Origin: Lophium mytilinum
Lineage: Eukaryota; Ascomycota; Dothideomycetes; Mytilinidiales; Mytilinidiaceae
DNA: 64,000 bases
Assembly (NCBI GenBank): GCA_010093605.1
Contig: MU004190.1
Coordinates: 62,001 to 126,000 of the forward strand
Direction of reading: 5' to 3'
Shown piece after piece: positions 1 through 25,512 of this stretch. How positions within the stretch are numbered: the stretch's first letter is position 1; each line of letters begins with the position of its first letter. The notes below the pieces were generated by a model. The model was not told where the DNA came from and ran no database searches. It worked only from the letters and a program-made list of their open reading frames with translations. The translations under genes and the position numbers were made by a program.

Positions 1-2
1 TC

Positions 3-818
3 GGCCGCGAAACTGCCCTCCTCTACGCTAAAGAAGGCTGCAAATCCCTTACAATCGCTGACCTCAATGCCGCTGGCCTTGAGGAGACTAAGACGAAAAT
101 CGGAGCCATCAACCCTGACGCCAAGGTCCGAATAGCCGTGTGCAATGTCACAGATGAAGCTTCCGTACAGAGCATGGTGGACGGCACTGTTGAGGAATTC
201 GGGCGCCTCGACTATGCCGCCAATGTAGCAGGAATGATATTGCTGGGCGTGCAGACGGCAGACATGAGCACCGACTTCTTTGAGAAGCATTATCAGGTCA
301 ATCTACGGGGACTATTTTTCTGCGAAAGGGCAGAGTTGCGGGCTATGCTGAAGCAGGAGCCGATTACGACAAAGGACTCGAAGTATCCTGCGAGGGGGGC
401 TATTGTAAATGTTTCGTCTATGTCGGGACTGGTGGCTTCGCCGGATATCCCTGCATATGCTACTAGCAAATTCGGAGTCGTTGGACTAACGAAGTCTGTA
501 AGTATTCAAGTGCTAACGAAGCAGGAAATCACGGGAGATGTTGGCTGATGTTCTCTTCAGGATGGTATGAACTACGGCTCAAAGCTCATCAGAGTCAATT
601 CAGTTGCACCTGGGGCAGTTGCGACCCCTATATTAGCCAACTCTGGCAACAAAGCATCCGCAACACCGCTGAAGGATTCAGCGGCAATGGATAACGCCTT
701 AGGGCGCTTCGCAGACCCAGAAGAGGTGGCGCAATGCATCGTCTGGCTCACGAGTGGCCGAGCCAGCTACGTAACTGCTTCAACCGTGGTCGCAAATGGG
801 GGACAGCTTGGAGGATAG
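3..818 (+). CDS. Short-chain dehydrogenase/reductase, 5' end outside window
   Basis: Classical SDR that would use NAD(P)(H) to reduce a carbonyl or oxidise an alcohol. The frame is open from base 3, so about 20 N-terminal residues, including the glycine-rich nucleotide loop, lie to the left. One intron (498-560, GTAAGT to TTCAG) joins two exons with the frame kept. Visible signatures are the DLNA stretch after beta-2, the segment YAANVAG, and the catalytic YATSK (Tyr-x3-Lys) preceded by NVSS. The C-terminus ends in a typical VANGGQLGG. It resembles the SDR at 19189-20203, sharing KQEP and PARGAIVNV segments, so the two are probably paralogues. The exact substrate cannot be told from sequence. 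Confidence 0.93.
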
Positions 819-1425
819 TTCTTCAATACCATGACTTTCTCGAGTCGTTCCTGAGCTTCGAGATAACACAATAATCCCCCAATCCACTTTTTACAAGCTC
901 CAAAATACATGTAAATAGGCTCCTATGCTTTTGTTCCGTATCCTTATCGTACCCGCTGTGCCGCTCTTGAATGCACCACAGCTTGCCCATATTCGTCCAT
1001 TCCACAATGTTTGTGCTTTCAAATCAGATGATTTTCTACTAGCTCTTTATTGGCCATTCCTGCATCTCGACCCCGCACGCACTAGTGACTCCGACATTCT
1101 TGGCTATCTCACCGGGGCACGACGGGGGTCGACATGAAGCATCTCTCTCACGGAAAATCTGCAATTCAACACAGAGACACCCACAGCGTCACGGATTGGC
1201 GCCTCCCCACCTCTAATAGCCATTCTGCGGTGGGGAAAGCCCTTCTTTTCATTGTCCTGCGAGCTCGAGGGCCAAAATGCCGTGATTCCGAATGCCGTTG
1301 AGAGCGGCCGGTGGGAGGAGGCAGGACGGAGAGAACGTTTGGCGGACGTTAACACGTAGACAGCCCGCTGTTGTGTCTGGCTCTTTACCTCCCTCTTTTC
1401 TGTGTGTGGTATCGGTAGGTTGACA
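819..1425. other. Intergenic: SDR 3' end and P450 promoter
   Basis: No convincing coding sequence in either strand. The stretch holds the SDR 3' flank and the P450 upstream region, including a GCGGGGTC-type element at 1067-1080 on the minus strand. Confidence 0.6.
1067..1080 (-). promoter_or_regulatory. Candidate cluster element (GTGCGGGGTC)
   Basis: Read on the minus strand it contains GTGCGGGGTC, one base from the GTTGCGGGGT element seen at 12245, 22791 and 24107. It lies about 350 bases upstream of the P450 start. It could also be a CreA-type (SYGGRG) site. Confidence 0.35.
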
Positions 1426-3344
1426 ATGGACGCCTTTCAAAAAACCACTGGTGGTGTTGTGGCTGCTTTAAGGGAATCGGCGAAGGAGATGCCTCCATTG
1501 AACGAGTATCAGCTTTGTGCAGTAATAGCTGCTCTTGTAAGTACTCAAAGGAGCCTGATCTTTGTAGAATCAAGGCGGTGTTGAGATGCATTTGCTAATC
1601 GTCCCTCCAGAGCACACATGCACTCTTCCAGCTCCATGAATTCCAGCCTATGGATGTTCTTTTCGCATTCTCTGCTCTGAATCTTGGTCTAAGACTGTTT
1701 CTCGACAAGCAAAGCACTGAGACTGGCATTGTTGCTTTACAGGCCCAGCTCAATCTGATCTACTTCGTTTCGCTTTTGTAAGAGACTTTTGATTGCTACA
1801 GAGTTTAGTCATACTGACTATCCTAGCACATCAATATCCATCTACCGACGATTCTTCCACCGTACCAGACGATACCCAGGTCCCTTCTTAGCTTCAATCA
1901 CGAAATGGTGGGCATGGGGCGTCGTCTACAAGGGCGAGTATCACCGCACTGTGCGGGCTCTGCACGACTCTACCAAGAGCGACATCGTCCGCGTCGGACC
2001 CCGCGAGCTCGACATCTGCAACGTCGATTTCATCGCTCCGATTTATGGTGTAGGCACCAAGTGCAAGAAGGGGCCATGGTACGAAGGTACTCTAATGGGC
2101 AGCCACCACCGCTTCTTGCAGAACGAGAAACCTGAGCCCCACATCTGGAAGCGGAGGATCTGGGACGCGGGTTTCAACTCGAAAAGCATTCGCGAGTACG
2201 AGCCACATGTGTTGCGTGTCAACGACGAGCTATTGGAGAAACTAAGGAAACTTACTAAAGACGGAAAGCCTATTGATCTTGGTCTCTATTTTGCATTCTT
2301 CACATGGGATATTATGGGCGATCTCGGGTAAGTCTTCGCGTATCTTATGTATTGATTGACGATACATAATCGAATCGGACTAATATGCCCTTAGGTTTGG
2401 AGAGACGTTTGATATGATCAACACAGGCACCGCAAATGACGCCATGAATATCGTGCAGGGCTTCACGCGGTTCAACTCGTTGGTTTGCACGATCCCATGG
2501 TGCTCCACTCTCTTTGCTTGGTTCCCCAAAGATCCAAAGGCCGAAGGGCTCTTTACATTTGCCAAGGAGAGAGTCAAGCAGCGCCTCCCTCTCGGCACCA
2601 CCCGCGACGACGTCTTCACGCACTTGCTCCGCGAGGATCGAGTTTCAAAGAGAAAGTATAGCGACTTGGAACTAATACTCGAGTCCCTGATGCTCACTAT
2701 CGGCGGCTCCGACACCACTTCTAGCAGCTTAGCGTAAGCACTCCCCATGCTCTTAATACGGCTTCTCAAACTAACTACCGACACCCAGAACCATATGCTA
2801 CTACCTCATGGCCCACCCCTCCAAATACGCCAAGCTTAAAGACGAAATCCACTCCTACGACGGTCCGCTCACCCACCTCCACCTCGCCAAATTCCCGTAC
2901 CTCAACGCCGTCATCCGCGAGGCTCTGCGCCTGCTACCACCCATCGGATCAGGCATGATGCACCGAGAGACACCCCCAGAAGGCCTCACCATCAACGGCA
3001 TTCACCTCCCCGGCAACACGACCGTGGGCATCGGAGCGTACGAGATCCAACGAGACGCGAGGTACTACGGGAAGCCTGACGAATTCATCCCTGAGAGGTG
3101 GCTAGGCGAAGGTCCCGAGCCATTCGATAGAAACGCGTTCCTTGTTTTCTCGTACGGTCCGTATAGTTGTGTGGGCAAGCATTTGGCGTATTTGGAGCTG
3201 TGCGATGTCATCGCGGGGGTGGTGAAGAATTTCGATATGGAATTTGCGCCGGGGTATGACGTGGGGAGTTATGAGATGAGCATTAAGGATACTGTGGTTA
3301 GTACGAGGGCGCATTTGCCGGTTATTCTTAAGGCGAGAGCTTAG
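1426..3344 (+). CDS. Cytochrome P450 monooxygenase
   Basis: Five exons: 1426-1536, 1611-1777, 1827-2327, 2395-2733 and 2789-3344. All phases agree and give 557 residues, within the 500-560 usual for microsomal fungal P450s. The N-terminal part is hydrophobic (membrane anchor) and leads into a proline hinge RRYPGPF. The I-helix reads IGGSDTTS, the K-helix ExxR is EALRL, and the heme loop is FSYGPYSCVG with the thiolate Cys near residue 500. It would hydroxylate a hydrophobic substrate at the ER with a CPR partner. It is followed in the same direction by a Baeyer-Villiger monooxygenase and a TauD dioxygenase, so it probably acts on the same substrate. The start chosen is the first ATG that splices in frame; an earlier exon is possible. 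Confidence 0.93.
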
Positions 3345-4114
3345 GGGGAGGCTGTGGGGTGCAATTCGCGAAGGCCGTGGGGAGCGGATAGCTAGCTGGA
3401 GAGAATGGAAGTGATTGCACGACTTGGACCAGTAGCCTATTTTGGAGGCTCGTGAAGTCACGAGCGTCCGTGAACACTACGCGTTTTCTGCAAAGTTTGC
3501 AGGTTGACGATTCTGCTACACCCTTTCCGCTGCTTCATCGTACGTTAAGAGGACGTTGGTTGGAGCACATCAACTAATAGTGAGACTCTCGACATAATTT
3601 ATTATGATATGTTCAACCCACGCCACCCAAGCCTTCTCGTGCCAAAACTTCAAATTCTTACCATTCACTTCCCGATTCCAATTCCCAGCCTTTCAATGAG
3701 CATCAGGAGACTCCGGAATTCAGCTACATCAAGCTCAAGCAATTCCCCTCGATCTGTGTTACCATTTGCAGTGGCAGTGGAAGTGAAGATGTGTAGAATG
3801 TAAATAGCTCGGAACGGAAGATGTGAATTGCATGACACAGTTTAGCGTATCTCCTGATGTTTTCCTAACAACGCGCCACTTTGAAGTGCCTCAGTCGCTG
3901 TGCTCTCTCATTCAGCTCACACTCGCACCAATCTCTGAGCTTGCTCGGAAACGGCGACTTCGGAACATTGGAATTGGAACCCCACAACTCGCCTAGACCA
4001 GATTCGGTAAAGCCATAGAAGGTGCATCATATCAGTATTTAGCAAAACATGTTCGGCATGTATATTGTTTGGTTTAGTTAGATAGAATTTTATTGCAATT
4101 TGTTCTTGCTGGCC
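3345..4114. other. Intergenic between P450 and BVMO
   Basis: No gene seen. It contains the P450 3' flank and the promoter of the next gene, with a GTTGTGGGGTTCC-like element on the minus strand at 3977-3989. Confidence 0.6.
3977..3989 (-). promoter_or_regulatory. Candidate cluster element (GTTGTGGGGTTCC)
   Basis: One mismatch (T for C) to GTTGCGGGGTTC at 12245, about 130 bases upstream of the BVMO start at 4115. Confidence 0.3.
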
Positions 4115-5988
4115 ATGGCGTCAAAGAATTACAAGGAGGACCGCACGTTCTGCCTCATCGTGGGCGCCGGCATGACCGGTGTCTCGATGGCGGCGCATCT
4201 GCTCAAGAAAGGTGTCTTGAAGCATGGTGAGTTCCGCCTTGTTGATCAACAGTCGGATTATGGCGGTGTTTGGGAAGCGAACAAGTATCCCGGTGCTGCT
4301 TGCGATATTCCTAGCCATGGATATGTTATGCGATTTTTCCTCAAGCCTGGTAATCTTTTCTCCATTTCAAGTCTTCATTGGCCGGAACGGAAGTTTGATA
4401 GTCTCGCAGATTGGTCAAAAAAATACGCGCCCCGACACGAAATCCAACAGTACTATGCGGAGATTGCCTACTACTACCACCTCGAACAGAGCTCCGTTTT
4501 CAACACCAAAGTCATCGAGGCGCGGTGGAACGAGGACACTCTCCTTTGGAACGTTTTGACGCAGCACATACCAACCGGCCAGCAAACACTATGGACAACG
4601 AATGTTCTAATCCACGCGGGCGGTCAGTTTTCCCGCCCAAAATGGGCCGATATCCCCGGACGAAAAACTTTCAAGGGAACGGAGTGGCATACTGCGGAGT
4701 GGCGGGACGACTTCGACCTCACTGGCAAACGTGTAGCAATCATTGGCACCGGACCCAGCACTGGACAAGTGGCACCCGCTATCGTTGATAAAGTCAAGAA
4801 ACTATACATTTACCAGCGAAGTGCTACCTACGTGGTGCCTCGCGGCGACGGTCCTATCCCCAAGTGGAAGCAGCGGTTATTCAACTGGTTCAAGCCAGTA
4901 CTCTGGCTTTACCATGTGTGGTGGTACTCTAGCGTATGAAATTCCCCAATCGCAAGTAGTTGAAGAAGAGGGAAGCTGACACACTGTAGTTCGAACGGAG
5001 CAAGCCTATGTGGCTTGTCGGAACTAAAGAACATGCTGCTGCTCAAGCTTACGCTATTCAACATCTAGAATCAACCGTTAAAGACCCCGTCACACGCGAG
5101 AAGCTGAGACCGCGGAACCAATTCGGTTGCAAGCGTCTCCTTGTCCTCGATGACTGGTATCCGCTGTTCAACAATCCCAAGGTAGAATTGATCACAGACA
5201 AACCGGTCCGGATAACGGAGAAGGGTATTGTTTCAAAACCCCCAGATCAGCTCCCCAAGAGCGAGCTTGCGAGCCTACCTCTTGGTTCTTATGACATCCG
5301 GAATGAGGCTCCTGATGCACATGAGGAAGAGCGGGAGATTGACGTCCTGCTTTGGGGAACTGGTCAGTCCTCCCTATCCTACCCTCGCATCGCACGCTAA
5401 CTCAGCTCAGGTTTCGAAATGGCAGACCAAGGCGGCCACTTCCAAATCTACGGCATTAACGGCGCCAACCTCGCAAAGACCTGGGGCGATTCGCCCAAAG
5501 CCTACTACAGCGTCGGCGTTGCCAACTTCCCCAACATGTGCCTCATGCTCGGCCCCAACGCCGCAAACTTCTGGTCCAACCTCACCACCATCGTCGAGGT
5601 GCAGTGCAACTACAACGCCAAGCTGATCAAGCACATCAAGCAGAAGAACCAGATTGGCCCATATGCGCTGACGGTAGATCCGAAGGTGCAGGAGTGGTAT
5701 AATGAGTGGATTAAAAGTAAGATGAAGGGAATCGCGATCTTGTCGGCGAATTGCTCTAATTACTATACGGTACGTGATGACATGGTGAACTTGATATTTG
5801 GATAGGTGCTGATGTTTGAGCAGAATAATAAGGGCGAAGCTACATACTGGAACCCATTCCATGGATACACATACGCGTGGCAGATGAAGTGGCCGAAGTA
5901 CAATGATTACCTCAAGTTCACGAAGCCAAAACCAGCCCTTACGAATGGCTATGCGAAGGGTGCGACTGCGACCGTTTCAGCGGTATAA
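4115..5988 (+). CDS. Baeyer-Villiger flavin monooxygenase (first of three)
   Basis: Likely five exons: 4115-4349, 4410-4933, 4990-5362, 5411-5769 and 5824-5988, about 551 residues. The FAD-binding loop is GAGMTG near residue 18. The BVMO fingerprint is FKGTEWHTAEW and the NADPH loop is GTGPSTG. The protein would insert one oxygen beside a ketone to make an ester or lactone, using FAD and NADPH. The first intron (4350-4409) is 60 nt without a stop, so an unspliced reading adds 20 residues between LKP and DWSKKYAP. Spliced, the text gives the continuous family motif LKPDWSKKYAP. The last acceptor could also be at 5805, adding six residues. It lacks the long N-terminal extension of the BVMO at 9909-11894. 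Confidence 0.93.
4350..4409 (+). other. Stop-free 60-nt intron in the BVMO gene
   Basis: GTAATC donor, GCAG acceptor, length a multiple of three and no in-frame stop. Removing it restores a conserved BVMO sequence; keeping it inserts 20 residues unlike the family. Confidence 0.75.
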
Positions 5989-6688
5989 GCTTGAATTGGA
6001 AGCTGTCTTGACGCGTCTGGGCTGGGTTTTGTCTGCATATGATTTTGGATAGCGAGGAGCTGAATGTGTACAAATGGTAGTTTTGTATCTCAAAGCATCG
6101 ATTATGGATCACCGGGGCGTTTCGTGGTTTCTTGTCACATCACTTTTGCTCGGGGCAATTTCAGTGAAATTGAACTTTGCATAGATTTGATATCATGTAG
6201 CTAATTCTGGCATTCTTTACGACACCTCTCTGAAACCCGACTTCGGCGAATCTGTCAGCCAAAAAATCACATGATTGGAATTGGAAGGGCAATATAAAGA
6301 GAGGAATGAAGTAGCGGCTGACAAGTGATGGCTGAGAAGTGGCGCATTCACTTCGACGCCGGAAGAAATATCTGGCGTTTTTCACTCCGTCATTCCCCGG
6401 ATCCAGCACCCCAGTGAGGGTCGCGGGGAACGCTATTCTAATACCCGTCATGTCAGAGAGTCTAGATTGGTGGGGTGCATGAGAGTTTGCTAACGCGTTA
6501 GAGGTCGGAATGGAATTGAGCATTCCGATTACATCACCTCCGCTTACATAGTCAGCCGCTGAACTTGATTTAAGCTTCAAGTGTTGTCGTTTTCAGCATC
6601 TTCTACAGACAACATCTTTGGTTCAACCTTCATCCCGTTTCGATTCTATCCACATTCAGACAACAGGACATTTTACAAACCGTTCGCA
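5989..6688. other. Intergenic: promoter of the TauD dioxygenase
   Basis: No gene seen. A TATA-like AATATAAAGAG lies near 6290-6300 and a TCGCGGGGAA element at 6421-6430, about 260 bases before the ATG. Confidence 0.5.
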
Positions 6689-7837
6689 ATGGTCATCCAC
6701 TCCGGCGTACCGAAGGAGATCATCTCCGAAGTTGATGGCGTCAAAGTCGCTTTCCGCCCTATAGATCTGCCAAATGCACGAATTGTCCATGGAAACCAGT
6801 TTCCTCTGGCAATGACTATGACGAAAGAGTCAGGCGAGAAGGTCACTGTTGACGAGGCAGCCAACGCTATCCGCGATCTTTCGGAGAGAGGAATTACCAC
6901 AGAGCTCATGAACAAGCACGGTGCTTTGGTCCTTCGCGGCCCAGCGGACCCATCTCCAGAGGCTTTCTCCAAGCTCGTCCATGCCGCAGAGGAAGGCCGT
7001 GGTCGTGTTCCGTATGACCAGATTGGCCTTGCTGGAAGCCGAACCGTTCATGGCAAGGAGGTCTTCAGTGCGTCTGAGTCCCCGCCACACCTCTGGATCT
7101 ACCACCATAACGAGTACTCCCGATATACAAAGTTTCCCAGCAACATTCACTTCTTCTGCAACGTCTCTGCTGAGGAGGGCGGCGAAAGCCCATTCTGCCA
7201 CAGCGGCGAGCTCTTCGACCGCCTTCAGGAAGACATCCCGGAATTTGTTGAGGAAGCTGCAAGGAGGGGCCTCAATTCGCCTGATGTCTACCGCGCACCT
7301 GGCAAAGAGGGCAAGAACTTCATCTTCACATGGGCCGGGCCGCTAGCCTTTGGCCGAGATATCAAGCCCGGAGATGATATGGCTACGATGAAAGCCAAGG
7401 CTGAGAAGGAAATTGCTAAGCTGACACCACACTTCTGGTGGATTGAAGACGACCAGCTCGAGGTCCACCAACACGTCCCTGCATTCCGCCGTCATCCGGC
7501 TACCGGAAAGCCCATCTTCTTCAGCAGCATCCCTGGACGCTATGGAACCGCTCTTGATCGTGGCGCTACTGACCCTCCATACATCGGCGACGATGGAATG
7601 GCGTTTCCCCCAGCCACATACACCGATGGTGAGGCCATCCCGAAGAAGTACCTCCATCGTGCATGGGAGATCAGCAACGAATGCCAGGTCGCCATCAAGA
7701 TGGAGGAGGGCGACATTGCGCTCGTGGATAACTACCAAACGACTCACGCCCGCGCTCCCTGGACTAAGGGCAACAGGAAGGTGTTTGTAAGTATGTGGGA
7801 CACTCTCAACCCGAAGGAGAAAATCCTCGATTATTGA
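6689..7837 (+). CDS. TauD/TfdA-family 2-oxoglutarate dioxygenase
   Basis: Single exon, 382 residues from the ATG at 6689. The frame is open upstream to 6581 but only with a GTG. Fe(II)/2-oxoglutarate enzymes of this family hydroxylate or desaturate small molecules. The iron-binding HxE is seen in HHNEYSRY and the distal His with the 2OG-binding Arg in TTHARAPW. The motif WIYHHNEYS and the segment EEGGESPFCH are typical of fungal members. It sits in the same direction as the P450 and BVMO, suggesting joint oxidation of one substrate. The stop codon overlaps the first copy of a short repeat array. Confidence 0.92.
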   Translation: MVIHSGVPKEIISEVDGVKVAFRPIDLPNARIVHGNQFPLAMTMTKESGEKVTVDEAANAIRDLSERGITTELMNKHGALVLRGPADPSPEAFSKLVHAAEEGRGRVPYDQIGLAGSRTVHGKEVFSASESPPHLWIYHHNEYSRYTKFPSNIHFFCNVSAEEGGESPFCHSGELFDRLQEDIPEFVEEAARRGLNSPDVYRAPGKEGKNFIFTWAGPLAFGRDIKPGDDMATMKAKAEKEIAKLTPHFWWIEDDQLEVHQHVPAFRRHPATGKPIFFSSIPGRYGTALDRGATDPPYIGDDGMAFPPATYTDGEAIPKKYLHRAWEISNECQVAIKMEEGDIALVDNYQTTHARAPWTKGNRKVFVSMWDTLNPKEKILDY

Positions 7838-8438: not shown

Positions 8439-9305
8439 TTATAATTTTACAGCCCTCTCAACCCCCTTCCTCGCATTCTCCAAATCGGTTCTATAACCCT
8501 TCACTAACGCATTATAATCAAACGACACCAACAAAAAATCCATCCCTTGCTTCGTCCTCTTCGCCGACAGCTCCTCACCGGTCCCCATACTCCCCACCGG
8601 CTTCCCCAACCTCTTCCCAATCCCCACAATCTTCTCCAGCGCCGCCACAAACTCGTCTTCCGGCCCATCACTCCCGCCCGAAAGCCCCAAGCTCAACCTC
8701 AAATCATACGGCCCAATAAAAATCCCCGTCACGCCATCCACACTCATAATCGCCTCCGCATTCGCAACCCCCTCCCTTGATTCAATAATCGGCAAAATCG
8801 CCGGCCCCCTCGCCTGCGCCTTCGCATAGTAATCCGCAAAACTGGTCCCCGGATCCAGACTCCCAAACGGCGCATTATACGGGCCGAAACTCCGTGATCC
8901 CCTCGGCGGGTACAGCGCTTTGTCGACAATCGCCTCTGCGTCGGCGGCCGTATGGACCATGGGCACGATGATGCCCGCGGCGCCGGTGTCGAGCCCCCAC
9001 TTGATCCACTCGGTGCTGTGGGAGGGGATGCGCAGGAGCGGGAGACACGCGCCTTGGGAGGCGGCGACGACGGCGTGCACGAGGTCGGTGGCTTGCTCCA
9101 TGGTGAAGGGGGCGTGCTCCATGTCGATCATGAGCCATTGGAAGCCGGCGCGCGCGGCGAGTTTGGCGGTGATGGTGTGCGGGAAGGAGAGGATGGTGCC
9201 GAGGATGGGGCCGTTGCTGGCTGCGATTGAGGAGACGAAGGTGTGGGAGGTGGGAGCGGTTGAGGGTTTCTTTTTGGAGGGGTCGGGTTGCTCGTCGTTG
9301 TACAT
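8439..9305 (-). CDS. HpcH/HpaI-family aldolase
   Basis: Single exon, 288 residues. Members are metal-dependent class II aldolases that cleave 4-hydroxy-2-oxo acids to pyruvate plus an aldehyde, as in homoprotocatechuate breakdown. Motifs seen are MIDMEHAP (acidic/His cluster), the pyruvate-side IESREGV, and FIGPYDLRLSLG, which supplies a metal-binding acid. The short N-terminal stretch is Lys/Pro rich with no clear targeting signal. It is convergent with the TauD gene and in the same direction as the following BVMO. In a cluster rich in ring-oxygenating enzymes an aldolase suggests carbon-chain cleavage after ring opening (inference). Confidence 0.93.
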   Translation of the reverse strand: MYNDEQPDPSKKKPSTAPTSHTFVSSIAASNGPILGTILSFPHTITAKLAARAGFQWLMIDMEHAPFTMEQATDLVHAVVAASQGACLPLLRIPSHSTEWIKWGLDTGAAGIIVPMVHTAADAEAIVDKALYPPRGSRSFGPYNAPFGSLDPGTSFADYYAKAQARGPAILPIIESREGVANAEAIMSVDGVTGIFIGPYDLRLSLGLSGGSDGPEDEFVAALEKIVGIGKRLGKPVGSMGTGEELSAKRTKQGMDFLLVSFDYNALVKGYRTDLENARKGVERAVKL

Positions 9306-9908
9306 TTTGGCGGTGAGGCAGGTGGTTCTGGGGAGTTGGCCTGCAAGTTCGAGTTGGAGTTGGAGCTGAAGCTTGAGATTTGAAACGTTATCGATATCGA
9401 GATTGGTGTTGACGTTGTATCTTCAATAGCTAGCTTTTGATTCACGTGATTTAAGCCATAGCCAGGGTGATGTTTCCGTGACAATTCCGTGAATGTGTTA
9501 CCAGGGCTCCTGTCCCGAAACCCGGGGCTTGCAGATGGCCAAAGCGCTCGCTTCTGCAGCTACCCGACGCTAATCTGCACCCCGGAGATCTACCCCGCCT
9601 TGTCCATTGACTCGGCGGCTCGTACCAGGGAGGCGGCACGCGTCTGACTGTGTGTTATCTGACGGAGATCTGACATGGAAAATTCAAACTCAGACGACTG
9701 ACGAAAGGCGAGACATGCAACTTTCACCTCACGGGGCACAGCGGGACGAGTCAGGAGGCCATGAAGCTGTTCATGCATATCGTCGAGGAAACTAAGTAAA
9801 ATGGGATCTCTAGACCACAACCGGCCAATTCGAAGCAAAAACCCGCTATACGTTCAAAACACCAGCCCGCGAAAGATTACCAACATCTTCCCAGAGGCAG
9901 ATTCCCGC
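9306..9908. other. Intergenic between aldolase start and BVMO end
   Basis: No gene seen. A TACCCCGCCTTG element (GGCGGGGTA on the minus strand) at 9591-9602 lies about 290 bases upstream of the aldolase start. Confidence 0.5.
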
Positions 9909-15318: not shown

Positions 15319-16092
15319 ATGTCTCTCTCTAAGCAGCAAGAGGGGATCAAGCAGCGATTCATTGACCAAAGAGGAATATGGGACGAGAACTGGGAAGCAA
15401 TCCTCAAGCTCAACCCGGCATACTTGTCCGTCTACATCAATCTCCGTGATGCCTCTCAAAAGAAACAGCGGTTACCTCCGAAGGTGCAAGAATTCATCTA
15501 CATTGCAGTTGCGGCCTCCACAACCACCATCCACGAAACCGCGGTCAAAGCCCACATCTCCGCCGCTATCAAATGCGGCGCCACTGCCGACGAGATCTTC
15601 GAAGTCATAGGCCTTACATACCTCGTCGGTATTCACACCGTCACGCTCGGCGCACCTATACTCATCGACTTGATGGAAGAGCTGGGGATCGAGGGTTCGA
15701 AATCCGAGGAGCTGAACGCAGAGCGTGAGCGCATACGGCAGGACTTCATTCGGCAACGCGGATTCTGGCCTGAAACCTTCAATCCGCTGCTGGAGCTTGA
15801 CCCACACTACTTCGAAGCCTATACCGATTTCTCGGGCTTGCCGTCGAAGACGAACGTGCTGGAACCGAAGGTGCGGGAGATCGTGACTTGTGCTTTTGAT
15901 GCGGCGACAACGCACTTGTATGGACGCGGGACGAAGATTCATATGCGAAACGCGCTGAAACTGGGCGCGACACCGGACGAGATCATGGAGATGCTGGAGA
16001 TTACGAGCCTGATGGGCATCGATGGAGTGACGTCCGCAGCGCCAATCTTAGCTGCAGCGGCTAGTGCTGCTACGAATGGAAACGCCGCTTGA
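15319..16092 (+). CDS. Tandem carboxymuconolactone-decarboxylase-like protein
   Basis: 257 residues from the ATG at 15319; an upstream in-frame TTG was not used. Two CMD/AhpD-like helical repeats are seen, about residues 25-120 and 140-245. Each starts with a similar FI(D/R)QRG segment and contains a PPKVQEF or EPKVREI helix followed by A..H...A....GAT.DEI. The second repeat has GRGTKIHMRNALKLGATPDE. No CxxC pair, the peroxidase site of AhpD, is visible, so a decarboxylase or lactone-hydrolysing role fits better than a redox one. In other fungi related proteins take part in aromatic degradation or polyketide tailoring. Confidence 0.88.
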   Translation: MSLSKQQEGIKQRFIDQRGIWDENWEAILKLNPAYLSVYINLRDASQKKQRLPPKVQEFIYIAVAASTTTIHETAVKAHISAAIKCGATADEIFEVIGLTYLVGIHTVTLGAPILIDLMEELGIEGSKSEELNAERERIRQDFIRQRGFWPETFNPLLELDPHYFEAYTDFSGLPSKTNVLEPKVREIVTCAFDAATTHLYGRGTKIHMRNALKLGATPDEIMEMLEITSLMGIDGVTSAAPILAAAASAATNGNAA

Positions 16093-16297
16093 TTAGACTC
16101 GAGACTGGCTAGGGGCAAGTAGATAGATCTAGACGAGTCATATTTAACGGGGTTTACCCCAGAATGAGTGTTGTCGAAGTCCGGCAATGCACGTGCAAAA
16201 CCTCACTGAAGATCATGGTGTTATCAGCAAGATTGGGGGGTTGCACCGAAGTGCAACGCTTTTGATTCTCGATACGGGTATGCCGCTAGCCCTCGTC

Positions 16298-17482
16298 TTA
16301 AACTACTTCGTTGAGGCCTTGGTTGTATAGCGTCCGCATGTACTCTACCATCGACACCTGCCTTTCCGATACCACTGATCCATCTTTCCTCGTAAACGTC
16401 GCTACCGTGTCGGCAATGTAGCTATGCACCAAAATCGTTCCACCTCTTCGAATCCAGGTATAATACCACCGCCCATAAGCTGTCACAGTTGCATCCAGCG
16501 TGCCCAGTTCCGTAATTGCCGTAATCTTCCACTTCGACGGATTGATCTGGTTTGTTTTTGGGTCGAACCAGTTATCCAGAGCAATTATCTGCGCGTACAA
16601 CGGCTCCTCGACAATGATTGTTTGATTGTCTATGTTGATGAACATCTGGATAGACATGGTATCGTTCCCGACATCGGTTCCCATAGTCCAGAAGGAGAAC
16701 TGTTTGCCCCAGCTGTTGAACCAAGGACTTCCACGGCCACCCATATACTGAAGCCGAGCTGGGACCACTCCAGCAGTGATGATGCGTTCATGAATAGCAT
16801 AGCCTTCCGAGATGGTGTATGTGATGTTGTTTGCAGTGACGGTGCCATTGGCTTTGAGGTGAAGGATGCCACCAGCTCCGCCTCCCTCGCTATTGATCTC
16901 AGTAAAAGGCCCGATCTGATAGAAAAGATCAGACCACTGCACGAGATCGAGGTTGACTTTGATCCCGCCATGCTCTCCTCTTGCCTTGTAGTGCGGGGGG
17001 CTGGAAGCCAGTTCGCGACCATCCAACTTCCACGTAACCTCGTCCTTCGTTTCATTGAATTGCAAAGCCCCAGGGGTATAGTAGTCATCGATGTTCTGGC
17101 CCTTGTTCAGGAAAGGAGTGTTATGCATGATCTCTTTCTCAGCCGCAGTATAATTGGTGACTACCATCGCGGACTGCGAAATGTCGCAATCGATGACCGT
17201 GTCAGTGCCTACCTGGCGATATAGGAATAGCCAGAGTAGGAGGTCCTCCTCGGACTCGGTCTTAGCACGAACAACGTAACCAAAGTCGCTGAACAGGTCT
17301 TTGGTATAGTTATCGGGCACGATTGGGCCATCCTGGGGGACTTCGAACGCTGGTGCAAGTAGATTGGTGTAACTGGGAGGCGCCGGGATGCATAATGAGC
17401 TAGCGAGAAGGGCCGCCGTGCTGGTTGATGCAAGCAGCTGGCCAGGTGGAGTATATGTTGGAGTAGGGAATAGTAGAGACAT
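16298..17482 (-). CDS. Possible AttH/kievitone-hydratase-like protein
   Basis: Intronless, 394 residues. An N-terminal segment (about residues 18-33, STAALLASSLCIPAP) is hydrophobic and could be a signal peptide, although it is preceded by a polar/proline stretch. Several N-x-S/T sites support a secretory route. Beta-rich text with WKLDGRELASSPPHY, GGAGGILHLKANG and many aromatic residues suggests the lipocalin-like AttH fold. That fold includes fungal kievitone hydratase and Diels-Alderase-like pericyclases. This family assignment is from impression only and is tentative. If right, it could hydrate or cyclise an unsaturated substrate outside the cytosol. It is divergent from the SDR at 18160. 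Confidence 0.6.
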   Translation of the reverse strand: MSLLFPTPTYTPPGQLLASTSTAALLASSLCIPAPPSYTNLLAPAFEVPQDGPIVPDNYTKDLFSDFGYVVRAKTESEEDLLLWLFLYRQVGTDTVIDCDISQSAMVVTNYTAAEKEIMHNTPFLNKGQNIDDYYTPGALQFNETKDEVTWKLDGRELASSPPHYKARGEHGGIKVNLDLVQWSDLFYQIGPFTEINSEGGGAGGILHLKANGTVTANNITYTISEGYAIHERIITAGVVPARLQYMGGRGSPWFNSWGKQFSFWTMGTDVGNDTMSIQMFINIDNQTIIVEEPLYAQIIALDNWFDPKTNQINPSKWKITAITELGTLDATVTAYGRWYYTWIRRGGTILVHSYIADTVATFTRKDGSVVSERQVSMVEYMRTLYNQGLNEVV

Positions 17483-18159: not shown

Positions 18160-19092
18160 ATGGCAGAAAAAAAGGTTGTCAGTTCTGCAATGGAGGAGGT
18201 CTTGGACATAATCCCCCCTCCAGAAGTCTCCCTCGAATCCCAAGGAAAGGCACCCGGCCGCGGTCGTCTCATCGGGAAGCGCATTCTGGTCGTCGGCGGC
18301 GGCCAATCGGTCAACACCTTTGACGACAACCCACCTATCGGGAATGGACGTGCGTCATGCGTGCTCATGGCACGTGAGGGCGCTACAGTGGTGGTAGCAG
18401 ACCTTTCCGCAGAAGCCGCCCAAGGCACCGTCGACATTATCGAGAAAGAGGGAGTCGGAAAAGCTCACATGGTCATCGGAGATGTCTCTACCCCTGAAGG
18501 ATGCTCGGGTATTATTCAAGACTCGTTGAAGGCCCTAGGCGGGCAGTTGGATGGGTTGGTGATCGGCGTTGGGATCGTGGGAGCTGGAGCGTCAATACCG
18601 CACTACTCTGCAGCCTACTGGGACCGAGTGATGAATATCAACGTCCGCTCTCACTTTTTGATACTCCAGGAAGCTCTGCCGCATATCGAGAAGCAGCCTG
18701 CGGGAGGATCGGTGGTCTCAATCAGCTCGATCTCACAATATCTGCCAGCTTCCACCGAGCCTGCGTACAATGCATCGAAGGCGGCACTTTCGATTCTCAT
18801 TAAGAACGTAGCGTACCAGTTCGCTCCTCGTGTGAGAGTGAACACTGTCGTACCTGGATTGATTGACACGCCTATGGGACGAAGTTCAGGAACGAAGATC
18901 AAGGGTCGGAATGCAAGTGCTGTACCGCTGGCACGACAAGGATCCGGCTGGGATATAGGATACGCTGTCACTTTCCTAATGAGCGGAGAAAGCTCGTTCA
19001 TAACCGCAACGGATATGATTGTAGACGGTGGTTACGTCGGCATGGGAAGTAAGACAGCGAAGAAGCCGAACCAAGAGACAGGGGTGTCGTAG
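18160..19092 (+). CDS. SDR with an enlarged nucleotide-binding loop
   Basis: Intronless, 310 residues from the ATG at 18160. An about 40-residue N-terminal extension precedes the Rossmann fold. Instead of the usual TGxxxGxG, the glycine motif is stretched: GGGQS at 46-50, then a 10-residue acidic/proline loop, then GNGRA at 61-65. After it come ADLS (beta-2 acid, suggesting NAD preference), SISS and catalytic Tyr203-x3-Lys207 in YNASK. The C-terminus has the usual VDGGYVG. It would oxidise or reduce an alcohol/ketone pair. Substrate unknown; the company of BVMOs suggests it supplies or uses ketones. Confidence 0.9.
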   Translation: MAEKKVVSSAMEEVLDIIPPPEVSLESQGKAPGRGRLIGKRILVVGGGQSVNTFDDNPPIGNGRASCVLMAREGATVVVADLSAEAAQGTVDIIEKEGVGKAHMVIGDVSTPEGCSGIIQDSLKALGGQLDGLVIGVGIVGAGASIPHYSAAYWDRVMNINVRSHFLILQEALPHIEKQPAGGSVVSISSISQYLPASTEPAYNASKAALSILIKNVAYQFAPRVRVNTVVPGLIDTPMGRSSGTKIKGRNASAVPLARQGSGWDIGYAVTFLMSGESSFITATDMIVDGGYVGMGSKTAKKPNQETGVS

Positions 19093-19188
19093 GGTTTTGC
19101 TACCCCTTGAGTCAATCGAACGACTGATGCAATTATTACTTGAAGGCACCAATCATAGGCGCTCATACTGTTACATATGCACCATAAG

Positions 19189-20203: not shown

Positions 20204-20594
20204 ACTGAGAAATTTGGATTTTGAGCACAACTCAGATTTGAAGGTTTTTGTTGAGGTGACTGAGAAGTGTTCCTAGGAAATGTTGAGCGACTACACTCCC
20301 CTTATGTATATTTTCGAAATCGCAGGTCCATTGTTCCGCCCTTTCGCTCGGAATTTGATTGATCGGAAAGACCCCCTATGGGGAAGTTCGCAATATCCAC
20401 CGCACCTCTATCTCCAAATATTTAGTATTTAGTATTCCAGTCTCTTTGATTATCAGCCGCGACACTTCATCATATGAGTTCACTGTTTACGAAAGCTTAT
20501 TTTTGCACTAGATTGGATACGCCTCTTCTATGTCAAAACTTTCCATTACCGACCAATCATACATCCAAGAATCGAAACGCTCTACAGCTCCGCC
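20204..20594. other. Intergenic: SDR promoter and BVMO 3' flank
   Basis: No gene seen. A small palindrome-like CCCCCTATGGGG occurs at about 20372-20383. No clear TTGCGGGG element was found. Confidence 0.45.
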
Positions 20595-22508
20595 TCAAAG
20601 CAAACCAGGCACAGTGACCGAATGTGCTACACCACCTGGCGTATGCTCCTCTGGGTTGATGACAGGCGGGATATTGACCTTATCAAGATATTCCGTCGTC
20701 ACTCTCTCCTCATGCTGCGCCAAGGTATGCCCGTTCCCAAGCCACGAGTATTCATTGCCCACAATCTCAGGCATCAAGTCGTAGTTGAAGTCCTCCCACC
20801 TCGGGTTCTCAAACGCCACCGTAGCATGAATACACGACCCAGACCAGAGCGTCACGACACGGCCGTCCTCTTTCCCACGCTTCATCCACGACTTGCATGG
20901 CTGTGTATAAATAGTCTTAGTGAAGTACTTGTCGAGATGCCCGCTGAACTGCTTGTTGGCTCGTGGGCTGATGACGATGGACTTGATGTACTCGCGCTGC
21001 AGCTTCTGCACTACTTTGATCATGTACTCAGCTGCGCACTCGACTAGATGAATCAAGCTTCCGGTGCCAGGACCGCCGTTGGGACCCAAGAAGCGCATAT
21101 GGTTGGGCATTTTCGGGGGGAAGATGCCAAAGTAGCATTCTGGAGTAGGATTCCATACATCATCTAGGGAGACACCGTCTTCGCCAATGATTGGGAGGGG
21201 CTGTCGCAGTGTGGTGTCGAAACCCGTAGCGCAGATGATGGTGTCGACCTTGCGGAGCTTGCCATCGACGGTCTCGATACCTTCGGGCACAATCTTCTTG
21301 ATCTTGGTGTTGATGAATTCCACGTTATCTTCTAGCAAAGCCTCGAGATAGCCAGGACCGGGAGTGAGACGCCGGCAGCCTGGTGGGAATGCGGGCTCCA
21401 GAGCGGCCATGATCTCGGGCTTCTTCTCCAACTTCTTGGCCATTGCTTCGCGATTGATGATCTGGAACTCCTTCTGGGATGGCGTGCCGAAGAGAGTGAT
21501 CAAGGAGGCTTCATTGACCATAGCTTCGATGTGATGCCTGTATGCCAGGTACTCTTTCGGGTCTTTCCTCCATTTCTCTAGCTCCTCTTCCGAGTGCTTG
21601 ACTACGGGTTTGTCAGTTTCGCGGAGTCGTGAGAAGCTAAACATGGACACTTACAGTTACCAGTAGCTCCCCGAAGTTTGAGTTCTTGACTGCCGAAACC
21701 AATAGGCGATATCCAGGTCTTGCCGGACATATAATGATCTACCCGTTTCGCAATGGGTTGAATGGTAGGCAGAATCTGGATCCCCGAAGAGCCAGCGCCA
21801 ATGAGTGCCACGTCCTTATCCTTGAGCGGTGTGTCTTCCTCCCAGTTCGCCGAATGCACGAGCTTCCCCTTGAAGTCTTTTAGTCCCTCAATGGTTGGCC
21901 ACTGCCATTTGTTGAGGATTCCGGTTGCGCTGAGGTAGATATCACAGGTGTCGACAAAAGTCTAGATAATCATTAGCAGAGGTCCCGGAACAAAATTCAC
22001 GATCCTTACAGTTCCAGTTGTCGTATCTTCAAGAGTGACGTGCCACTTCCCCTCGTCTGCTTTCCAGGTCGCGCCTTTGAGAGTGTGGTTGAACTTCATA
22101 TATCTATATGCGCCATACTTCCGTGCCGTGCGCTGAAGGTACGCCTGAATCTCAGAACCAGTTGAATAATATTCACTCCATTGATTGTTGTTCTCGAAGG
22201 TGTACTGATAGCTGTGGCTGGGGATGTCGCATCGAACACCGGGGTATCTAGAGCTCACGGTCAGATCCAGTGATTGGAATAAGTGAATTTGGCGGAATCG
22301 CGCACCTGTTCTCGAACCAAGTTCCGCCAACGTCGGCATTCTTATCGTATACAGTCAAAGTGAGATTCTGGATTTTTTGCGGAAAACGGATGGCAGTAAG
22401 AATGCCAGAGATGCCGGCACCAATGCAGATGACCTTCATGGGCCTGTAGTCGTCGATGCAGTGCTCAAAAAGCGGCGGTAGGCCGTCGAAGGTTCCGGTT
22501 GATCCCAT
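20595..22508 (-). CDS. Baeyer-Villiger flavin monooxygenase (third)
   Basis: Four exons on the minus strand: 22508-22306, 22247-22010, 21961-21655 and 21601-20595. Phases agree and give 584 residues. The first donor is GTGCGC, an uncommon form. The FAD loop is GAGISG. The family segments GGTWFENRYPGVRCDIPSH and FKGKLVHSANW (BVMO fingerprint with Ser in place of Thr) are visible once introns are removed, and the NADPH loop is GAGSSG. It would convert a ketone to an ester or lactone. Divergent from the ABM gene at 22958 across 449 bases that contain GTTGCGGGGTAC, so the pair is probably co-regulated. Confidence 0.93.
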
Positions 22509-22957
22509 GTTGAAGAAAGTCGACTCGGTCTTTGGTGATGTGGTTCGAGAAGCTACAAATTGCAACTAGGAATGTTCGAAAGATGGTTAAGCAGGACTGT
22601 GATTCTTCGCGCTGAAAGATGCTCTTTATCCCTCTGAGTTCTTCGAATGTTGGAGAGGTCGAAGATAGATTTCCAGTTAGCCATTCGGGGCCTCGGCTGC
22701 CGATTAACCGTCTTTCGGAATTCAGCATTTCCAGGATTGGTCGAACCACTGGTTTGTATAGAGAAGCGTGACGACAGGGGCAATTCCGGCGTTGCGGGGT
22801 ACGAGTAGCTTTTGGGAGGGGCAACTTTGCCCCTCCATCACAAGTTCTATCGATGAACTGAACAATAGCAATATTGCATCACGCGATATTCAGGTTCTCT
22901 TTTTGCTTGCAGACACATCGCTTTTTGACTCGTTCTAGGCCTTGACAGATATCCAAA
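22509..22957. promoter_or_regulatory. Divergent promoter: BVMO / ABM-domain gene
   Basis: Contains the cluster element at 22791-22802 roughly in the middle. No gene is supported here. Confidence 0.5.
22791..22802 (+). promoter_or_regulatory. Candidate cluster element GTTGCGGGGTAC
   Basis: 285 bases from the BVMO start and 156 bases from the ABM-domain start. Nearly identical to the element at 12245. Confidence 0.45.
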
Positions 22958-23707
22958 ATGTCGTCGAATATTGCACTTCACGTGAGGATGAAAGTCCAAC
23001 CAGGGAAACGGGACGAGGTATTGTTATTAACACCTTAAACGCCCATATACTGACTAATTGCTTCAAAGCTGATTGACGTATTGCGCCCAATAGAGAAGAA
23101 AGCACGAGAAGATCCAGGAACCCTGGCATACTTCATTGCAATTCCAGCTCAGGGAGATGACGGTACACAGATTGCCATGTTTGAGATGTATGCTACATCA
23201 TCCCGCAAGCTTTTAAGATACCACTAAGAACATCATAGATATGAAGATCTAGCAGCATGCGATGCTCATTCCGCAATGCCAGAAGTCGAACCGTTAAGAA
23301 AGGCCCTCCCAACTCTCCTCGCAGAGAAGCCTTTCTCACTTCGCTGCACCCCATTCGGCAAAGGCTTCATACGCCCAGGTATCTCAGAAGAGAAGGCAGA
23401 CGCCGGCCTGTCCCTCATGATTCGCATGACCTGGGCCGAGGGCACTGATATGGCGCAAGTCAAATCGAATTTCGAGGATCTAATTGCATACAGCCAAACG
23501 GAGTCTCAGACGTTTGCGTATCACTACGCTACCAATGAAGAGACTCCAAACACGTTATACGCTTTTGAGCAGTTCGAGTCAGGGGAGTTTTGCATGGGAA
23601 CACATATGAAGTCGGATCAGTTTATCAAAACTCAAAGCTATGCTGCGGATGCGCTCACGCCTGATCCATTGTTTGCGAAGAGAGTACTGGGCTTTTCAAA
23701 GAAGTAA
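22958..23707 (+). CDS. Double antibiotic-biosynthesis-monooxygenase (ABM) domain protein
   Basis: Three exons: 22958-23017, 23069-23187 and 23239-23707. Phases agree and give 215 residues. The first half has the ABM pattern: an ALHVRMKVQPGK strand, Arg-Glu-Asp-Pro-Gly, then MFEIYEDLAACDAHS. The second half repeats it with SQTFAYHYATNEE, TLYAFEQFESGEF and a THMKSDQF segment. ABM proteins are small ferredoxin-like dimers that act as cofactor-free oxygenases on aromatic substrates, or simply bind them. A fused double domain would be a built-in dimer. Divergent from the BVMO at 20595-22508. Confidence 0.82.
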
Positions 23708-24295
23708 CAATTCTATTTGAACAGTCACAGCTATATTAACTATTCAATTCAAACTTCTGCCAACACTATTATGTTCCAAACCTATGCCTATCTGAGCTCT
23801 AGATTAGAGAGCAATATGTGTGCTTAACAGGGACCATTTCAGCCAATGATCGTCAATACCGGCCTGGTCTAAAAGATGCGAACAGTCATTGGCTGCATTA
23901 GCCCTCGTCCTTGCAGCTCGGGAATCGGTTGAGCTATAAACGAGGTCCGCGACCTCAATACCGCACCTCTCTCTGTTTTGCTTTGCACATACCCAGGACG
24001 GACACTGCCACGACGTTCACCCTTCACGGCCGACACGCCACGCTATCCCACACAGTTAGAACCGCAGATTTCGGTTACAACGGTAGTCAGATACCCAAGC
24101 ACACTCGTGACCCCGCAACCACATCTTTCCGCGCGCTTTTCCGCCCCTCCGCGTTGTACACAACGCGAACTTCCAAGCGGAGTCTGCGTTGTTGTTTGTA
24201 GATTTGAACTAGTAGTAGACGAAAGTGGTTTCTTCCAGATCTCACACCACCAGTTTCTCTCTCCCTCGACAATTCCTTTGAAGTATCGAGCCACC
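23708..24295. other. Intergenic: promoter of the cyclase-family gene
   Basis: The frame of the next gene is open back to 23978, but no family sequence precedes the ATG at 24296. The cluster element at 24107-24119 is in this stretch, with a CT-rich leader after it. Confidence 0.5.
24107..24119 (-). promoter_or_regulatory. Candidate cluster element GTTGCGGGGTCAC
   Basis: Minus-strand match lying 177 bases upstream of the ATG at 24296. Core identical to 12245 and 22791. Confidence 0.45.
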
Positions 24296-25512
24296 ATGCC
24301 CATTCAAGTCCCAAAATACGGTGACCTCCCCATAAAACCCGACGCGCCTGCAGGCTCAGCATGGGGCGTCTTCGACAAGGATGGGAAACGCGACGTCTAC
24401 GGCACGCTGAACTTCATAACGCCCGAAGCCGTCGTAGCCGCGAAATCAGAGATTCAAGTCGGAGAGTCCGTGGTGCTCAAGTACTCCACCCACTCCAGCA
24501 ATCCTTCCATAAGCTGACGTTCCGCCTCAGCCTCCCATTCCATCTCCCTCATGTGCCTTGCGGCGCTGAAATCCGCAAGAAGTCGACGCACAATGTCCTC
24601 ACCAAGAACTTTGGCATGTTCTGCCTCGACGACGAAGTGAGCTTCAACACGCAGAGCTCGAGCCAATGGGACGGATTGTGTGCGACGACTGTCCAAGTAT
24701 GCGCTTTCTCTGGCTAACGGATGATTAGTGCATTACGCGCACCAGGAGCGCCAGGAGTTCTACAACGGCGTCAAGTACGCTGATGTCGCGGAGACGCGGA
24801 CGGATGCGACGCTTGGGATACAAGGTTCGCAAGGCTCCTTTTTCTATCACACACACTCAAACATGTCCCAGTTGAGGTTGAGGTTGAGGAAGTTGGCTGA
24901 TATGCATAGCGTGGTGCGACCGCGGTGGGATCGTCGGCCGCGGCCTCCTCCTCGACTTCGTGCGCTACGCAGCTAAACACAACATCACCTACGACCCGTT
25001 GACTAATTACGCTATCACCCTTACGCAAATCAAGGAGATGATCGCAGAAGCAAAGCTAGATATCCGGCAAGGCGACATCCTTATGATCCGCAGCGGTCTC
25101 AGCAAGTGGATCCGTGCGTCCACGCCTGAGAAAGGGGATCCGTGGGTGGGCAACAAGCACATTGGCGTGGATGCCACTCCGAAGCTGATTGAGTGGGTGT
25201 GGAATCAGAATTTTGCTGCCGTGGCGGGGGATGCAGTGGCGTTTGAGGCGTGTCCGTGTCCGGATGGGAGCTGTAAGTCGAGACTGTTCGATTCTGGTGT
25301 CGGGGTTAACAGGCGCTGACCATGATGTAGTCATGCGGTTGCATCAAGCGGCATTGGCTGGATGGGGAATGCCGATCGGCGAGCTTTTTGATTTAGAGAA
25401 GTTGGCGGAGGTATGCGAAAGGGAAAAGCGGTGGAGCTTCTTCGTGACGGTGTGTCCGCTTAATGTGACTGGAGGGGTAGCTACGATGTGCAACACGTTA
25501 GCCATCTTGTAG
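24296..25512 (+). CDS. Cyclase-family (PF04199-type) hydrolase
   Basis: Five exons: 24296-24480, 24531-24679, 24729-24824, 24910-25272 and 25331-25512. Phases agree and give 324 residues. The second and third introns use rare donors (GTGCGA and GTTCGC). The assembled protein shows the fungal family landmarks: a start like PKYGDLPIKP, NTQSSSQWDGLLHYAH, WCDRGGIVGRG, QGDILMIRSG, and LHQAALAGWGMPIGE with PLNVTGG near the end. Bacterial relatives are metal-dependent hydrolases such as kynurenine formamidase with HxGTHxDxPxH. That motif is replaced here by the QWDGLLHYAH form usual in fungi, so the true activity is uncertain. It may hydrolyse a lactone or amide made upstream. Confidence 0.88.

What the first reader, a model, noticed from the sequence alone, without database searches (positions are those of the whole stretch)
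1..25512. Fourteen-gene oxidative cluster without a backbone enzyme
Three Baeyer-Villiger monooxygenases, a P450, a TauD dioxygenase, three SDRs, two ABM and two CMD domains, an HpcH/HpaI aldolase, a cyclase-family hydrolase and a sugar/quinate-type transporter sit next to one another. This set can in principle oxidise a ring ketone, open the lactone and cut the chain, with import included. No PKS, NRPS, terpene synthase or prenyltransferase is seen. A catabolic or detoxifying island for a plant phenolic or cyclic ketone is the preferred reading. A tailoring arm of a larger biosynthetic cluster is the alternative.
Basis: partly seen in the sequence, partly recalled or inferred. Interest (0 to 1): 0.85.

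Follow-up and report, generated by a model that had tools for sequence, protein, structure and literature searches.

The report
Fungal subtelomeric ketone-breakdown gene cluster
Near one chromosome end of a filamentous fungus lies a block of genes that share a promoter signature and look built to import a ring-shaped ketone-type compound and break it down, with no product-building enzyme recognised beside it; the kind of cluster is known, its substrate is not.

Summary
In detail: window 1-25512 holds 14 fungal genes (SDR x3, P450, three Baeyer-Villiger monooxygenases, TauD, HpcH aldolase, sugar-type MFS, one two-domain CMD protein, one ABM protein, cyclase-family hydrolase, one orphan). No core synthase was recognised to the left. 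Instead the block goes on for about 20-25 kb: SDRs, bicupin, second sugar-type MFS, TfdA-like TauD, second cyclase, FMN dehydrogenases, a/b hydrolase, regulators. No ketosynthase, NRPS-condensation or PF19086 terpene-synthase match lies on this contig. New here: CGGAAT occurs within 500 bp upstream of 12 of 15 core genes against 6 of 70 control genes, in silico evidence for common control. Best reading: a coordinately regulated catabolic cluster that imports a ring ketone (or alcohol), inserts oxygen, hydrolyses the esters and cuts the chain by retro-aldol. Substrate unknown; expression not tested. It is a new member of a known kind (fungal degradative clusters). A phenolic substrate is not shown: no ring-cleaving dioxygenase was recognised among the annotated genes, though the bicupin's activity is open.

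The parts
1..818 (+). SDR1 (266 aa; first exon lies at -108..-66, left of the window)
   Evidence: 51% identical to SDR3
1426..3344 (+). cytochrome P450, 5 exons, 557 aa
   Evidence: PF00067 E 3.1e-53; heme motif FSYGPYSCVG, EALR, GGSDTT
4115..5988 (+). BVMO1, 4 exons, 571 aa (one intron border set by hand)
   Evidence: no close paralogue in the genome search
6689..7837 (+). TauD-type 2-oxoglutarate dioxygenase, 382 aa
   Evidence: PF02668 E 5.5e-29; At3g21360 1y0z E 1.3e-23, 9yut E 3.5e-29
8439..9305 (-). HpcH/HpaI aldolase, 288 aa
   Evidence: PF03328 E 2.6e-32; PDB aldolases and macrophomate synthase; motifs
9909..11894 (-). BVMO2, single exon, 661 aa with ~150-aa N-terminal extension
   Evidence: one 54% paralogue at C20:678797
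12863..14684 (-). MFS sugar-type transporter 1 (531 aa, C-terminal exon joined by hand)
   Evidence: PF00083 E 1.7e-81; 46% identical to MFS2 left of the window
15319..16092 (+). two-domain CMD protein, 257 aa, the only match in its own genome
   Evidence: AF2 model pLDDT 82.2, Foldseek 2q0t E 1.3e-15
16298..17482 (-). orphan 394-aa protein, possibly of the AttH/CrtC lipocalin-like superfamily (weak)
18160..19092 (+). SDR2, 310 aa
19189..20203 (-). SDR3 (260 aa, last exons joined by hand)
20595..22508 (-). BVMO3, 4 exons, 584 aa
22958..23707 (+). ABM protein, two ABM-like halves by reading (first exons joined by hand)
   Evidence: PF03992 E 4.9e-13, one stretch
24296..25512 (+). cyclase-family (PF04199) hydrolase, 5 exons
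   Evidence: 5ibz E 1.6e-27 (with two borders changed by hand); 36% identical to the second cyclase left of the window
1285..1290 (-). CGGAAT promoter element (P450)
3714..3719 (+). CGGAAT promoter element (BVMO1)
6506..6527 (.). two CGGAAT promoter elements (TauD)
9484..9489 (-). CGGAAT promoter element (HpcH)
12214..12219 (+). CGGAAT promoter element (BVMO2)
14847..15141 (.). three CGGAAT elements in the divergent MFS1/CMD promoter
20349..20354 (+). CGGAAT promoter element (SDR3)
22716..22788 (.). two CGGAAT elements in the divergent BVMO3/ABM promoter

Best explanation
It is a subtelomeric, coordinately regulated catabolic gene cluster of a filamentous fungus, about 45-50 kb and 20-26 genes, of which the window holds the right half. 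Proposed working: sugar-type MFS proteins import a ring compound; the P450 and TauD enzymes hydroxylate it; SDRs oxidise alcohols to ketones; three divergent BVMOs insert oxygen next to successive ketones to give lactones or esters; cyclase-type hydrolases and the a/b hydrolase open these; SDRs, the CMD and ABM proteins process the fragments; the HpcH aldolase cuts a hydroxy-keto acid to pyruvate or oxaloacetate plus an aldehyde; FMN dehydrogenases oxidise 2-hydroxy acids. Shown: gene content, order, catalytic motifs, no backbone enzyme by the searches made, shared promoter element. Inferred: every reaction, their order, the substrate class and the direction of transport.
For: Gene content. 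Left flank to the telomere read, no backbone enzyme recognised; no KS, condensation or PF19086 match on C10. Shared promoter element: CGGAAT upstream of 12 of 15 core genes against 6 of 70 controls (hypergeometric 5.1e-8; 0 of 56 consecutive and 0 of 300 random 15-gene control sets reach it); divergent pairs merged, 9 of 11 core and 4 of 7 left promoters, 14 core sites against 1.0 expected; the three convergent gaps have none, nor has the gap up to the right neighbour. Motifs kept in BVMOs, P450, aldolase, TauD. Two transporters with 46% identity and two cyclases with 36%. The double CMD has 214 prokaryotic relatives confirmed by the scan; in the 80 kept, neighbours similar to the fungal queries include SDR in 63, BVMO in 12, HpcH in 10, and BVMO plus HpcH together in 5.
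Against: No expression or growth data. No classical ring-cleaving dioxygenase and no CoA ligase or beta-oxidation gene was recognised, so the route to central metabolism is incomplete inside the cluster; the bicupin is unassigned. P450, BVMO, ABM and SDR genes are also common tailoring enzymes. A backbone gene elsewhere could act in trans, and families not searched (other terpene synthases, prenyltransferases) are excluded only by reading. Two core promoters (orphan/SDR2 and cyclase) lack CGGAAT. The density version of the motif test was matched by 2 of 200 control sets, and by gaps it is 9 of 14 against 15 of 71 longer control gaps. Start codons, here and in controls, are predicted. The bacterial neighbour counts have no background control.
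Confidence: 0.65

Rival explanations
1. Tailoring arm of a biosynthetic pathway whose core synthase sits elsewhere in the genome: BVMOs, P450, ABM and SDRs modify a polyketide or terpenoid made in trans.
For: The family mix is typical of tailoring. The best NCBIfam match of BVMO2 is pentalenolactone D synthase (E 1.3e-47, 162 bits against a cut-off of 1100); the P450's three best are albaflavenone monooxygenase, a RiPP P450 and pentalenene oxygenase, all far below cut-off. KS, condensation and terpene-synthase stretches exist on other contigs.
Against: None of these on this contig; two sugar-type MFS, two cyclases, TfdA-like dioxygenase, aldolase, FMN dehydrogenases and a/b hydrolase point to breakdown.
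Confidence: 0.17
2. Two adjacent catabolic clusters: a left one (a/b hydrolase, FMN dehydrogenase, TfdA-like TauD, cyclase 2, MFS2) and a right one (window genes), for different substrates.
For: The left half repeats families of the right half, and CGGAAT is weaker there: 6 of 11 genes, 4 of 7 merged promoters. A different pattern, CCG-N10-CGG, is commoner on the left (4 of 7) than in the core (2 of 11), against 1 of 70 controls.
Against: CGGAAT occurs in both halves; no housekeeping gene between them was recognised.
Confidence: 0.13
3. Accidental gathering of non-housekeeping oxidoreductases in a subtelomere, without a common pathway.
For: Subtelomeres of fungi collect such genes (recalled); other BVMO groups exist in this genome, e.g. 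C2:620-651 kb and C10:1927-1932 kb.
Against: Density far above uniform placement and the shared promoter element.
Confidence: 0.05

Closest known systems
Fungal degradative (catabolic) gene clusters, e.g. the FDB1 benzoxazolinone cluster of Fusarium verticillioides (PMC4726666, passages with its gene table seen)
   Same: Linked enzymes, transporter and Zn2Cys6 regulator; degrades rather than builds.
   Different: FDB1 lists NmrA-like, MFS, two amidases, dienelactone hydrolase, metallo-beta-lactamase, amino acid transporter and salicylate hydroxylase; no BVMO, TauD, HpcH, CMD or ABM in that table.
BVMO-based terpenoid detoxification by Grosmannia clavigera (review PMC8120277, passages seen; original not held)
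   Same: Two BVMOs, CMQ_7007 and CMQ_6956, implicated in detoxification of monoterpenes in a fungus.
3-hydroxyanthranilate/salicylate cluster of Aspergillus terreus (PMC7842363, passages seen)
   Same: A fungal catabolic cluster with a BVMO and an SDR as syntenic neighbours in some aspergilli.
   Different: Its core is 3HAO, ACMSD and AMSDH; none recognised here.
Bacterial operons with a double CMD protein (Acidiphilium pACRY02, Sodalis pHS1, Paraburkholderia, Phytohabitans)
   Same: Double CMD with cupin, NIPSNAP (recalled to share the ABM fold), NAD(P)-dependent oxidoreductases and MFS on the three plasmids; in Phytohabitans SDR, HpcH and BVMO lie within about 7 kb.
   Different: Identities to the fungal queries run from 22% to 50%; no TauD, orphan, ABM or bicupin match in the 80 loci; their function is also unknown to me.

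Membership tests
Fungal secondary-metabolite biosynthetic cluster | core PKS, NRPS or terpene synthase in or next to the cluster | tested here: not met
   no KS, condensation or PF19086 match on C10; gene models of the left 62 kb and right 38.5 kb show none by eye; prenyltransferases and other terpene-synthase families judged only from the gene models
Fungal secondary-metabolite biosynthetic cluster | co-located tailoring enzymes, transporter, regulator | tested here: met
   shared with catabolic clusters, so not discriminating
Fungal catabolic gene cluster | physically linked degradative enzymes, transporter and regulator without a synthase | tested here: met
Fungal catabolic gene cluster | common control | tested here: met
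   in silico only: CGGAAT upstream of 12 of 15 core genes against 6 of 70
Fungal catabolic gene cluster | induction by, and growth on, the substrate | not testable with these tools
   needs RNA-seq and deletions
Type I Baeyer-Villiger monooxygenase | FxGxxxHxxxW fingerprint (recalled) | tested here: met
   all three proteins
Type I Baeyer-Villiger monooxygenase | two GxGxxG Rossmann motifs (recalled) | tested here: inconclusive
   both found in BVMO2 and BVMO3; in BVMO1 only the first matched
HpaI-type pyruvate aldolase | curated equivalog score of TIGR02311 | tested here: not met
   132.7 bits against cut-off 368.8
HpaI-type pyruvate aldolase | active-site His, Glu and Asp motifs (recalled) | tested here: met
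   DMEHAP, IESREG, IGPYDL
AhpD-type alkylhydroperoxidase | CxxC (recalled) | tested here: not met
   none in the double CMD protein
FDB1 benzoxazolinone cluster | amidase, metallo-beta-lactamase, dienelactone hydrolase set | tested here: not met
   none among the annotated cluster genes against the table

The most novel reading that the evidence does not exclude
An undescribed fungal route in which three non-redundant BVMOs act one after another on a polycyclic or terpenoid-like ketone, joined to retro-aldol cleavage and helped by a bacterial-type double CMD protein and an uncharacterised orphan family, all under one CGGAAT-reading regulator and without a classical aromatic ring-cleaving dioxygenase.
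Probability: 0.3. Interest if true: 0.6.

Novelty: new member of a known kind. Interest (0 to 1): 0.42.

Why it matters
If right, it offers a defined regulon, with a candidate operator sequence and candidate regulators, for breakdown of a ring ketone in a fungus. According to the review seen in passages (PMC8120277), the only fungal enzymes characterised in terpenoid detoxification are from one species, and the purpose of clustering detoxification genes is still elusive. Three divergent BVMOs and a small uncharacterised family (the orphan, with four more copies in this genome) are also enzyme leads. The operator makes the hypothesis directly testable.

Tried and rejected
Orphan 16301-17482: no Pfam match at 0.001, no PDB match by sequence, one chance-level profile hit, AF2 single-sequence model useless (pLDDT 30.6). 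Only weak Lipocalin_9 (2 of 6 members), DUF7065 and DUF7064 (1 of 6 each) matches among six families listed, so the AttH/CrtC label is a lead. Species: the 5.8S search gave nothing; left unknown. Rejected: AhpD peroxidase for the CMD protein (no CxxC); FDB-like benzoxazolinone cluster; classical aromatic ring cleavage (no such enzyme recognised). Paired CGG patterns: of 63 spacings tried, CCG-N10-CGG stood out in 9 of 26 core plus left genes against 1 of 53 (p 1.2e-4 uncorrected); with merged promoters 2 of 11 core and 4 of 7 left against 1 of 70. It is kept as a second lead, not as the core signal. A first attempt to refine models used a wrong start setting and was replaced.
Full report
Setting. 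The window is bases 62001-126000 of contig C10 (1,945,977 bases) of an unnamed 43.18-Mb genome in 24 contigs. C10 starts with a (TAACCC)n telomere. Introns, fungal Zn2Cys6 and Fungal_trans regulators and neighbours recognised by eye, such as NPC1-, DBR1- and importin-like genes, show a filamentous fungus. The species was not determined (one search found no 5.8S match).

Gene content. A small splice-aware gene finder trained on 94 long ORFs of this contig, with some exon borders set by hand, gives 14 genes in window 1-25512. Pfam names 13 of them: SDR1, P450, BVMO1, TauD, HpcH aldolase, BVMO2, sugar-type MFS, double CMD, SDR2, SDR3, BVMO3, ABM and cyclase. One, the orphan at 16301-17482, has no match at E 0.001. 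The gene at about 27 kb, aldose-epimerase-like by eye, starts the right flank, where no synthase was recognised by eye up to 64 kb.

The enzymes look functional by motif. All three BVMOs have the FxGxxxHxxxW fingerprint and share only 25-32% identity with each other. P450, SDR, TauD and aldolase motifs are present (motifs recalled; SDR2 has an unusual glycine-rich stretch). By sequence the BVMOs are nearest to cyclohexanone, phenylacetone and related monooxygenases, the aldolase to HpcH/HpaI aldolases and macrophomate synthase, and the TauD protein to At3g21360 and 9yut. The double CMD protein models well with a 30-row alignment (pLDDT 82.2) and matches 2q0t, a putative gamma-carboxymuconolactone decarboxylase subunit (Foldseek E 1.3e-15).

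The left side. Next to the window lie an SDR (C10:60.4-61.2 kb), a 915-aa regulator with C2H2 fingers, two Zn2Cys6 stretches and Fungal_trans, a bicupin (only weak PDB matches, to DMSP-lyase cupins and others), an SDR, a second sugar-type MFS (46% identical to the first), a Fungal_trans regulator, a second cyclase (36% identical), a TauD protein closest to 2,4-D dioxygenases (5j92 E 3.6e-40, 5bke E 2e-39), an FMN dehydrogenase with a cytochrome-b5 domain upstream, an a/b hydrolase, a regulator-like gene without a Pfam match, and another FMN dehydrogenase. Left of about 34 kb the genes are mixed: housekeeping-like ones, plus an MFS gene at 29.6-31.6 kb that I did not count in. Whole-genome family searches found ketosynthase (21 stretches), condensation (20) and PF19086 terpene synthase (2), none on C10.

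Clustering. In the genome I counted 40 BVMO/FMO-like loci (72 fragments merged), 25 TauD (43 fragments), 9 cyclase (27 fragments), 5 orphan-type, 2 HpcH and 1 double CMD. Ten of these 82 lie in 42 kb of C10. In 20,000 uniform placements the fullest 42-kb stretch held 5. BVMOs group elsewhere too (7 neighbouring pairs under 20 kb against 0.72 expected), so the uniform null is generous.

Common control. Hexamers in 500-bp upstream regions of 15 core genes (the 14 plus the SDR at C10:60.4 kb) were compared with control genes on the same contig. CGGAAT was the best: 12 of 15 against 6 of 70 (p 5.1e-8); none of 56 consecutive and none of 300 random 15-gene control sets gave any hexamer as extreme. 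An earlier run with 53 controls gave 12 of 15 against 3 of 53. Neighbours share divergent promoters, so I merged them: 9 of 11 core promoters carry 14 sites where 1.0 is expected (p 9.0e-7 by promoters); in the left block 4 of 7 merged promoters, or 6 of 11 genes. By intergenic gap it is 9 of 14 core gaps against 15 of 71 control gaps, which are longer on average; by density 14 sites against 2.1 expected, and the three convergent gaps have none. In that density version 2 of 200 random control sets had a hexamer as extreme as the best core one (AATTCC, which overlaps the longer form CGGAATT), so the support there is about 0.01. The orphan/SDR2 and cyclase promoters have no CGGAAT. The 1.5 kb between the cyclase and the epimerase-like start has none. 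A second pattern, CCG-N10-CGG, is in 2 of 11 core and 4 of 7 left promoters against 1 of 70. CGG is the usual half-site of Zn2Cys6 regulators (recalled). The regulator is not identified.

Relatives in prokaryotes. The CMD protein has relatives at up to 50% identity; of 214 confirmed, the best 80 were kept with up to 10 kb on each side. In these 80 the fungal queries found an SDR in 63, BVMO in 12, sugar-type MFS in 12, HpcH in 10, a cyclase in 1 and no TauD, orphan, ABM or bicupin. BVMO and HpcH occur together in 5 (L050, L052, L053, and L072 and L096 with a BVMO cut by the locus edge); in Phytohabitans L050 a GntR gene, HpcH and a BVMO lie beside the CMD operon. On plasmids of Acidiphilium, Sodalis and Paraburkholderia the double CMD lies with cupin, NIPSNAP, NAD(P)-dependent oxidoreductases and MFS. 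In the archaeon Natronosalvus a cyclase gene is next to it; the Ensifer record shows a different setting, and one Paraburkholderia record had no annotation. There was no background control, so these are parallels. The orphan has one plasmid record with relatives, in Novosphingobium (38.6%), and a paralogue on C4 beside a cyclase paralogue.

Interpretation. No synthase, two importer-type transporters, hydrolases, an aldolase and hydroxyacid-type dehydrogenases argue for breakdown. Three BVMOs with P450, TauD and SDRs argue for a ring ketone or alcohol with several oxidation sites. Weak NCBIfam resemblance of BVMO2, and in part of the P450, to terpenoid enzymes hints at a terpenoid, no more. The order of steps is inferred.

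Literature. Searches of the open library showed no description of this gene set in the listings seen (titles and abstract starts; long lists were capped at 10-20); that does not show it is unpublished. The passages seen place it among fungal degradative clusters: the A. terreus cluster, the review of plant-defence detoxification, FDB1 and toluene-degrading Cladophialophora immunda, for which five clusters are reported.

Noticed in passing
C10:56674-59718, left of the window (window -5326..-2282): One predicted regulator carries C2H2 fingers, two Zn2Cys6 stretches and Fungal_trans in 915 aa; possibly two merged genes, otherwise an unusual build.
   Followed up: partly
G000:C4:1371204-1373914 (L126): A paralogue of the orphan lies head to head with a cyclase paralogue about 600 bases away, suggesting the two families work together.
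   Followed up: partly
G000:C2:619908-651315 and C10:1927354-1932432: Other groups of BVMO/FMO-like loci: three in 31 kb on C2, and two about 14 kb from the right end of C10.
   Followed up: no
window 36198-45925: A second small group: zinc alcohol dehydrogenase, and by eye a regulator-like gene, a 2-oxoglutarate/Fe oxygenase and a P450.
   Followed up: no
L050, L052, L053 (Phytohabitans): Bacterial double-CMD loci with HpcH, BVMO and SDR neighbours within 10 kb, of function unknown to me.
   Followed up: partly
C10:43383-44970: The FMN dehydrogenase ends in AKL, a possible peroxisomal signal (recalled), and a cytochrome-b5 domain lies upstream in another frame.
   Followed up: no
C10:36573-60218, left promoters: CCG-N10-CGG occurs in 4 of 7 merged left promoters and 2 of 11 core promoters against 1 of 70 controls, a possible site of a second regulator.
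   Followed up: partly
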